Assembly (NCBI GenBank): GCA_002720855.1
Contig: PBIN01000002.1
Span: 1 to 64,000, forward strand
DNA: 64,000 nt
DNA from: Rhodospirillaceae bacterium
GTDB lineage: Bacteria > Pseudomonadota > Alphaproteobacteria > MPNO01 > UBA2964
Direction of reading: 5' to 3'
Position numbers and translations under genes: made by a program. The notes under the pieces are model-generated. The model was not told where the DNA came from and did not search any database. It saw nothing but the letters and a program-made list of their open reading frames with translations. Of this stretch, positions 23,701 to 25,263 are shown piece after piece. Each line of letters starts with the position of its first letter. Within the stretch, counting starts at the first letter, position 1.

Positions 23701-24267
23701 ATGTCCGAACCGACATCAAGATATGCGTTGGATAATATTAACGTCCTGGTTCTGGATGATAATAGGCATATGCGTAGCCTCGTTCAGTCCATCTTGCATT
23801 CTCTTGGCGTGAAGAATATTCGGGAAGCGGCGGACGCCGCCGCTGCCTTTAAGGAACTACAACATTTCCTGGCAGATGTTCTGATCGTCGATTGGCATAT
23901 GGAACCCCTCGACGGGTTGGATTTTGTGCGGCTTGTACGAACAGCCAAGGATAGTGCCAATCCCTATGTGCCGATCATTATGCTAACCGGTTATACCGAG
24001 TACCGCCGAGTGACAGAAGCACGGGATGCCGGAGTGAATGAGTTTTTAGCGAAACCAATTTCCGCGCGTGCCCTTTATCAACGTTTCGCTTCTATTATCG
24101 ATAATCCTCGGCCGTTCATAAGAACCAAGAACTTTTTTGGGCCAGATCGCCGACGTCAAGATCTCGGTCCGCCGCGCGGCGTCCCCGAAAGGCGTAGCGA
24201 TGTTCAGGAAGGCGACGGTGGTGAAGGGCTCAGTCAGTCGGAAGTTGAATCACTGCTTGGCGATTAG
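23701..24267 (+). CDS. CheY-like response regulator with C-terminal extension
   Basis: A protein of 188 residues. A receiver domain spans about 14-135: acidic pair DD at 19-20, phosphoacceptor D64 (LIVDWHMEPLDG), switch Thr in MLTGYTE and Lys in EFLAKPIS. The remaining 50 residues are charged and contain FGPDRRRQDLGPPR, a motif seen in alphaproteobacterial single-domain regulators, and no DNA-binding domain. The gene is 9 nt upstream of an HPt-like gene, suggesting a common phosphorelay. Confidence 0.85.
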   Translation: MSEPTSRYALDNINVLVLDDNRHMRSLVQSILHSLGVKNIREAADAAAAFKELQHFLADVLIVDWHMEPLDGLDFVRLVRTAKDSANPYVPIIMLTGYTEYRRVTEARDAGVNEFLAKPISARALYQRFASIIDNPRPFIRTKNFFGPDRRRQDLGPPRGVPERRSDVQEGDGGEGLSQSEVESLLGD

Positions 24268-24276
24268 ACGTTGCGC

Positions 24277-24771
24277 ATGTCCGATATAGAAATCATCAAC
24301 GCACCCAACACATTGCGTAAGGCAAAGATTGGCAGCGGGCCGGGTAAGCTGGATAAAGCATTGTTGGCCAAGGCCGAAGAGGCGATCGAAGAGTTCGTCG
24401 AAAAATACGCTGGATGGTTGCAAGAGGGCGCCGAGGAGTTGGAGAAAACGCGCAAACTTCTTGTGGAAGGCGATGAGCCGAAACAGGCGCTCGCCGATCT
24501 TTATCGTATGTCGCTCGATTTGAAGGGGCAGGGTTCGACATTTGGTTATCAGCTTATTTCGGCAGTTGGTGGCTCTCTCACTGATTTTCTTGATTCTGTA
24601 CGAGAAAATGGTGCCGGGCTGAACAAGATGCAACTAGATGTCGTCACGGCGCATGTAGGCGCAATAAGGGCGATCGTTTCTGAAGATTTAAGAGAAGAGG
24701 GCGGTCCCACCGGACAGGCTCTTTTGAATGGGTTGGCTCAGGTCGTCGCGAAAGGTCACACATCAAAATAA
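24277..24771 (+). CDS. HPt-like protein lacking the phosphoacceptor histidine
   Basis: A protein of 164 residues from ATG 24277 (an in-frame TTG at 24271 is less likely). It is strongly helical. The segment LYRMSLDLKGQGSTFGYQLI aligns by pattern with HPt domains, in which the phosphorylated His sits two residues before the LKG; here that position is Leu80 (SLDLKG). The glycines and lysine that surround the site are kept. It follows the response regulator by 9 nt. It may be a degenerate docking partner that sequesters the regulator rather than transferring phosphate; this is inference. Confidence 0.6.
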   Translation: MSDIEIINAPNTLRKAKIGSGPGKLDKALLAKAEEAIEEFVEKYAGWLQEGAEELEKTRKLLVEGDEPKQALADLYRMSLDLKGQGSTFGYQLISAVGGSLTDFLDSVRENGAGLNKMQLDVVTAHVGAIRAIVSEDLREEGGPTGQALLNGLAQVVAKGHTSK

Positions 24772-24822: not shown

Positions 24823-25263
24823 ATGACTATCCATCTTGTTAAGATTGCGGTCGGTATCGGCAGCGTCGATCATTTGCGGGAAGTTCAGATCGAACGGTTG
24901 CGCCAGGCGAAAGAATCTGGCGGTCCAGGCGAACTCCGCCACCTTACGCGTAACGCCCCGCGCCGCGCAGCCGAGGTTCTCAATGGCGGTTCGATTTACT
25001 GGATTATCAAAGGATACATACGTGTAAGACAACGGATTACGGACTTCGGTGAGGCTGTCGGCCGCAATGGTAAGCCACGATGCGCGCTAATCCTTGACCC
25101 GAAGTTGGTACAGACGCAGCTTTTGCCACACAAACCAATTCAGGGTTGGCGTTATATGGAGCCAGAGGCAGCGCCAGCTGACCTTACAAATCAGGAACGC
25201 AAAATCGAATCTTCGTTGCCAACAGAAATGGCTGACGAGTTGAGGTCTCTCGGCCTGTTATAG
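24823..25263 (+). CDS. DUF1489 family protein
   Basis: A protein of 146 residues. The pattern MTIHLVKIAVGIGSVDHL, then LNGGSIYWIIKGYIRVRQRI and HKPIQGWRYM, matches the DUF1489 family, which is largely confined to alphaproteobacteria. No catalytic residues or function are known to me. It converges with the ferredoxin reductase gene with a 4-nt gap. Confidence 0.8.
   Translation: MTIHLVKIAVGIGSVDHLREVQIERLRQAKESGGPGELRHLTRNAPRRAAEVLNGGSIYWIIKGYIRVRQRITDFGEAVGRNGKPRCALILDPKLVQTQLLPHKPIQGWRYMEPEAAPADLTNQERKIESSLPTEMADELRSLGLL

What the first reader, a model, noticed from the sequence alone, without database searches (positions are those of the whole stretch)
24277..24771. HPt-like protein without its histidine next to a response regulator
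The fold pattern and the LKGQGSTFG neighbourhood are kept, but the phosphoacceptor position is Leu80. A receiver protein is encoded 9 nt upstream. This could be a phospho-independent decoy or allosteric partner, a form of regulation rarely described.
Basis: partly seen in the sequence, partly recalled or inferred. Interest (0 to 1): 0.6.

Follow-up and report, generated by a model that had tools for sequence, protein, structure and literature searches.

The report
His-less HPt partner of Cle-type regulator
A phosphate-relay protein that has lost the residue that carries the phosphate is conserved next to a regulator of the kind that binds the messenger c-di-GMP; relatives have lost this residue several separate times, which suggests that the pair works by contact rather than by passing phosphate.

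Summary
24277-24771 encodes a 164-aa protein with a CheA-P1/HPt-like helical bundle and Leu at position 80, where HPt proteins carry the phosphorylated His; a receiver protein ends 9 nt upstream. It is no decayed gene. The Leu is fixed in all orthologues found (six more family genomes, two of a second family; Phe in a third), selection is purifying, and the surrounding KGQGxxFGY motif is kept. The family is a class-wide alphaproteobacterial module. Of 103 sampled copies adjacent or fused to a receiver with the arginine-rich tail of Caulobacter Cle proteins (c-di-GMP-activated CheY-like effectors, for which phosphorylation is dispensable), 25 lack the His, mostly replaced by Leu/Phe/Met. Parsimony needs about 11 changes; one origin is rejected (p-AU 4e-11). 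In 13 pairs the receiver lacks its Asp. So a third of sampled pairs cannot pass phosphate between the cognate partners. Best reading: an HPt-fold subunit that docks on its Cle-type regulator without phosphotransfer, with c-di-GMP as the likely switch. Docking and c-di-GMP binding are inferred, not shown. An AHP6-like decoy is the main rival.

The parts
23701..24267 (+). Cle-type response regulator, 188 aa: receiver domain with D19/D20, D64, T96, K118 kept, plus arginine-rich C-terminal extension
   Evidence: Pfam Response_reg 8.5e-23; residues checked on an alignment of 75 partner RRs; motif definition from PMC5677366
24121..24201 (+). Arginine-rich region of the RR, residues 141-167 (R-TKN-FFGPDRR-RQDLGPPRGVPERR-SD): two GP[DE][RK]R-like units between a flanking Arg and Asp
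   Evidence: sequence against the Cle motif [YF]xGP[DE][RK]R in tandem
24229..24258 (+). LSQSEVESLL at the RR C-terminus, resembling the FliM CheY-binding motif LSQxEIDxLL
   Evidence: motif quoted; no FliM or FliG in this genome
24277..24771 (+). HPt-fold protein without phospho-His, 164 aa
24289..24339 (+). Conserved N-terminal tail of the HPt-like protein (EIINAPNTLRKAKIGSG, residues 5-21), shared by His-bearing and His-less members and found at the junction of RR-HPt fusions
24514..24516 (+). Codon CTC, Leu80, in place of the phosphoacceptor His
24652..24654 (+). His126, conserved in the whole family with or without His80
24823..25263 (+). DUF1489 gene, conserved flank. Most family relatives have a second HPt-like ORF between it and the Leu80 gene; this genome does not
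   Evidence: Pfam DUF1489 2.1e-45; synteny

Best explanation
The gene encodes a catalytically dead HPt-fold protein that acts as a dedicated binding partner of the Cle-type response regulator encoded just upstream. It most likely docks on the receiver through the face that HPt proteins use, with Leu80 as a hydrophobic contact where His once took or gave phosphate, and through its conserved N-terminal tail. It cannot pass phosphate, so it would hold or release the receiver according to another signal, most likely c-di-GMP bound by the receiver's arginine-rich tail, and tune access to the receiver's output surface. Shown here: loss of His, conservation, predicted fold, gene pairing, Cle motif, repeated independent loss. 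Inferred: docking, c-di-GMP binding, direction of control (inhibition or activation).
For: Position 80 is Leu in every orthologue of the same genus and family found and in UBA830-type genomes, Phe in a third family of the order, always behind the same RR. Purifying selection: pN/pS 0.30-0.35 against genus mates, synonymous sites saturated. The surface around the His is kept without it: G84 23/27, Q85 21/27, G86 24/27, F89 23/27 in His-less members. 71 of 75 paired RRs carry the first arginine-rich unit. Cle proteins are activated by c-di-GMP and phospho-switch residues are dispensable (PMC5677366). The genome has GGDEF proteins. Of 103 pairs 25 lack His, 13 lack Asp, 36 lack at least one. Single origin of the loss rejected, p-AU 4e-11; 11 changes by parsimony. 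Natural fusions exist, His-less ones included. Folded in one chain with its RR, the HPt tail rises from pLDDT about 40 to about 64 and gains a short strand and helix; pTM 0.67. In one genus mate both RR and HPt carry one nonsense codon each while their neighbours are intact, as expected if they work together.
Against: No interaction or c-di-GMP binding was measured. No coordinates or PAE of the RR-HPt model could be read, so its docking is weak support. The receiver keeps all phosphorylation residues in this lineage, so phosphorylation from elsewhere probably still matters. The second arginine-rich unit (RGVPERRSD) is not a perfect match to the Cle consensus. Cle function is known only for flagellar motor and attachment in Caulobacter, and this genome has no FliM or FliG.
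Confidence: 0.55

Rival explanations
1. AHP6-like decoy: the His-less protein competes with a real HPt of the same cell for the receiver of a hybrid kinase or of the RR, and so damps a phosphorelay.
For: The genome holds His-bearing paralogues, one (HDIKGQGTTFGY) overlapping the end of a hybrid histidine kinase gene. AHP6 is a documented precedent. The RR keeps its Asp in all His-less pairs of the window's order.
Against: A decoy might be expected to be encoded with the relay it inhibits; here it sits with a Cle-type RR. The loss also occurs inside RR-HPt fusions (L106, L111, L149, L198, L025), where a freely competing decoy makes little sense. The paralogue is only 33% identical over the shared part.
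Confidence: 0.25
2. Phosphoryl transfer persists through another residue, such as the conserved His126.
For: His126 is conserved in 25 of 27 His-less members.
Against: It is equally conserved beside His80 (77 of 83) and lies in a different helix (117-136) from the phosphohelix (68-85). No His lies in that helix.
Confidence: 0.05
3. Relic: the HPt has become functionless and is kept by chance or translational coupling with the RR.
For: It evolves faster than its RR (62% against 93% identity to a genus mate); a downstream HPt-like copy is absent from this genome, and in one genus mate both genes carry stops.
Against: Open frame in several genera, pN/pS about 0.3, conserved motif and synteny over families; repeated loss of just this residue with the surface kept.
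Confidence: 0.12

Closest known systems
CheA P1 domain (e.g. R. sphaeroides CheA3 P1 with CheY6, 3kyj/3kyi)
   Same: Bundle fold: Foldseek rank 1, TM 0.77 by target; VIA Z 13.5 over 125 residues; weak sequence matches to CheA P1
   Different: Stand-alone protein, Leu in place of His, extra conserved N-terminal tail; 18% identity
Cle proteins of Caulobacter crescentus (CleA-E)
   Same: The RR partner: single receiver, arginine-rich tail with GPDRR units, conserved Arg in helix 4
   Different: Here paired with an HPt-fold gene, in a genome without FliM/FliG; FliM-like peptide at its own C-terminus
AHP6 of Arabidopsis
   Same: HPt protein without the phospho-His
   Different: Plant inhibitor of a phosphorelay; here bacterial, P1-like and locked to a Cle-type RR; convergent at most
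HmrX of Caulobacter (CC_1220)
   Same: Stand-alone alphaproteobacterial P1-like HPt, acting on holdfast and motility
   Different: Has the predicted phospho-His (H81); whether it belongs to the same family was not tested

Membership tests
HPt phosphotransfer protein (Pfam PF01627 / CheA P1) | Helical bundle of the HPt/P1 kind | tested here: met
   Predicted model, pLDDT 79.7; best-ranked solved structures are CheA P1. Designed helical bundles score nearly as high, so sequence support counts: weak CheA/Hpt matches and His-bearing relatives
HPt phosphotransfer protein (Pfam PF01627 / CheA P1) | Phosphoacceptor His in the HxxKG motif | tested here: not met
   Leu80; invariant in orthologues
HPt phosphotransfer protein (Pfam PF01627 / CheA P1) | Passes the Pfam gathering score | tested here: not met
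   15.9 bits against 24.6
Cle (upstream RR) | Receiver domain followed by tandem [YF]xGP[DE][RK]R flanked by Arg and Asp | tested here: met
   First unit exact (FFGPDRR), second near-match (RGVPERR), flanked by R141 and D167
Cle (upstream RR) | Conserved Arg in receiver helix 4 | tested here: met
   R108, in model helix 101-110; Arg in 100 of 103 partners; register against CleD R113 not checked residue by residue
Cle (upstream RR) | Binds c-di-GMP | not testable with these tools
   needs a binding assay
Cle (upstream RR) | Acts on the flagellar switch through FliM | tested here: not met
   No FliM or FliG in this 98% complete genome; genus mates have FliM. Shown only for CleA and CleD in Caulobacter, so not a strict condition of the class
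AHP6-like pseudo-HPt | HPt fold without His | tested here: met
AHP6-like pseudo-HPt | Inhibits phosphotransfer by competing with active HPts | not testable with these tools
   His-bearing paralogues exist, competition not tested

The most novel reading that the evidence does not exclude
Across Alphaproteobacteria a phosphorelay pair has been rewired many times over into a contact-and-c-di-GMP switch: the HPt fold serves as a structural or allosteric subunit of Cle-type regulators, and phosphate passing between the two was optional from early on.
Probability: 0.35. Interest if true: 0.75.

Novelty: new variant of a known kind. Interest (0 to 1): 0.55.

Why it matters
Cle proteins were found as c-di-GMP effectors that do without phosphorylation, but no HPt partner of theirs is mentioned in the paper read here. 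A co-encoded, sometimes fused HPt-fold partner that repeatedly loses its His would be a general second half of such effectors, and a natural experiment in how a phosphorelay turns into a contact switch. It predicts that annotating such proteins as phosphotransferases is wrong for about a quarter of the sampled pairs.

Tried and rejected
Replacement His elsewhere: rejected. Reciprocal loss (either His or Asp, never both): suggested by the first 75 pairs, gone with 103 (two lack both; Fisher p 0.73). FliM-like peptide as a mark of His-less pairs: common there (nearly all pairs of the window's genus and family) but also in four His-bearing pairs (L083, L092, L120, L125), so an old feature rather than a correlate. 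The string GPDRRR gave no paper. Searches for Cle plus HPt and for degenerate bacterial HPts found no description of this module in the library; subscription papers are not held.

Full report
Observation. 24277-24771 (+) encodes 164 residues; LDLKGQGSTFGY starts at residue 80, codon CTC. The RR gene 23701-24267 ends 9 nt before it. Pfam finds Hpt only below its cut-off; NCBIfam finds a partial CheA match at 2.8e-7; PDB sequences give weak CheA P1 matches. The window lies in a 3.58-Mb, 98% complete genome whose relatives are uncultured Alphaproteobacteria.

Fold. AlphaFold2 with eight orthologues gives mean pLDDT 79.7, residues 1-22 disordered, then five helices; Leu80 lies in the second. Foldseek ranks CheA3 P1 (3kyj, a complex with CheY6) first, TM 0.77 by target, E 0.01; VIA-align gives Z 13.5 over 125 residues. 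Designed bundles score nearly as well, so the fold alone proves little; the relatives with His make the assignment safe.

Orthologues. The gene order LipB-MgtE-(SLC13)-RR-HPt-DUF1489-oxidoreductase is kept, in whole or large part, in genus, family and the UBA830-type family. All copies in it have Leu at position 80; a third family of the order has Phe beside its RR (L012). pN/pS against genus mates is 0.30-0.35, for the RR 0.07-0.08, with synonymous sites saturated. The paralogues in the same genome have His at this column: one overlaps the end of a hybrid histidine kinase gene, one stands alone.

A class-wide module. A profile of the family matches 157 of 386 alphaproteobacterial genomes at 1e-12. 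I took out about 110 further loci and paired each HPt with its RR. 103 distinct HPts are adjacent (76) or fused (27) to an RR with the arginine-rich motif. 78 have His; 25 do not (16 Leu, 3 Phe, 2 Arg, 2 Asp, 1 Met, 1 Asn). 13 RRs lack the phosphoacceptor Asp (10 Asn, 2 Glu, 1 Ala); two pairs lack both; 36 pairs lack at least one. These are the better-scoring matches to a profile that contains window-type sequences, so the fractions are of the sample, not of nature.

Independent losses. Trees built without the His column need 12 changes for 127 rows (at least 5 forced by well-supported branches), 18 for 169 rows (at least 4 forced) and 11 for the 110 RR-linked rows; holding the 27 His-less linked rows as one clade costs 203 log units, p-AU 4e-11. 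Many branches are weakly supported, so the exact count is soft; that there were several origins is not. Hydrophobic replacements dominate although the site is exposed in working HPts (established for the family), which fits a kept contact surface (inference). The motif behind it, G84, Q85, G86, F89, G90, is kept at 74-89% in His-less members.

The regulator. Cle proteins of Caulobacter are single receivers with an arginine-rich tail, tandem [YF]xGP[DE][RK]R flanked by Arg and Asp, plus an Arg in helix 4; c-di-GMP activates them and phospho-switch residues are dispensable (PMC5677366). The RR here has FFGPDRR and PERR units between R141 and D167, and R108 in helix 4, Arg in 100 of 103 partners. 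Its receiver keeps the phosphorylation residues. The genome has GGDEF proteins but no FliM or FliG, so any output is not the flagellar motor, although genus mates have FliM. The RR ends in LSQSEVESLL, like the FliM peptide that CheY binds; a peptide that folds back on its own receiver is possible (inference).

Further decay in the same genome. Two fused proteins, L033 (309 aa) and L034 (316 aa), carry the receiver and one GPDRR unit, followed by the VPNxL junction. The C-terminal part of L033 matches the HPt profile weakly (15.4 bits) without the HxxKG motif; that of L034 does not reach significance. Both receivers lack the conserved Lys. They look like later stages of the same drift away from phosphorylation.

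Contact. To ask about docking I read through the RR stop (same frame, TAG as Gln) and folded both as one chain: pTM 0.67 with the linker disordered, and the conserved HPt tail rises from about 40 to about 64 in pLDDT with a short strand and helix. Coordinates and PAE cannot be read here, so this is a hint. In a genus mate with a single-contig chromosome both genes carry one in-frame TAG each while flanking genes are open: joint decay, or assembly error.

Conclusion. Phosphate passing by this protein is very unlikely; a phospho-independent partner of a Cle-type regulator is the best reading (0.55), a decoy in the AHP6 manner next (0.25). I found no description of the RR-HPt module or of His-less HPts paired with Cle-type regulators in the library.

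Noticed in passing
window 24229-24258: The RR ends in LSQSEVESLL, close to the FliM CheY-binding motif, in a genome without FliM or FliG; kept in most orthologues and some distant pairs.
   Followed up: partly
L037:6518-6868, L038:5322-5672, L041:6518-7030: A second HPt-like ORF directly downstream of the Leu80 gene in most family relatives (usually LLHNTKN: His kept, KG lost; Gln in L007), absent from the window between 24771 and 24823.
   Followed up: partly
L033:1486-2415, L034:1000-1950: Two fused receiver-GPDRR proteins in the same genome with degraded phosphorylation sites and a degenerate HPt-like or unassigned helical C-terminal part.
   Followed up: partly
L213:1771-2723: In one genus mate the RR and the His-less HPt each carry one in-frame TAG while neighbouring genes are open.
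   Followed up: partly
L021, L027, L089, L090, L095, L100, L117, L121, L127: A group of His-bearing pairs in which the RR has Asn for the phosphoacceptor Asp.
   Followed up: no
L177, L180, L181: Family members without an adjacent RR that carry Trp at the His position.
   Followed up: no
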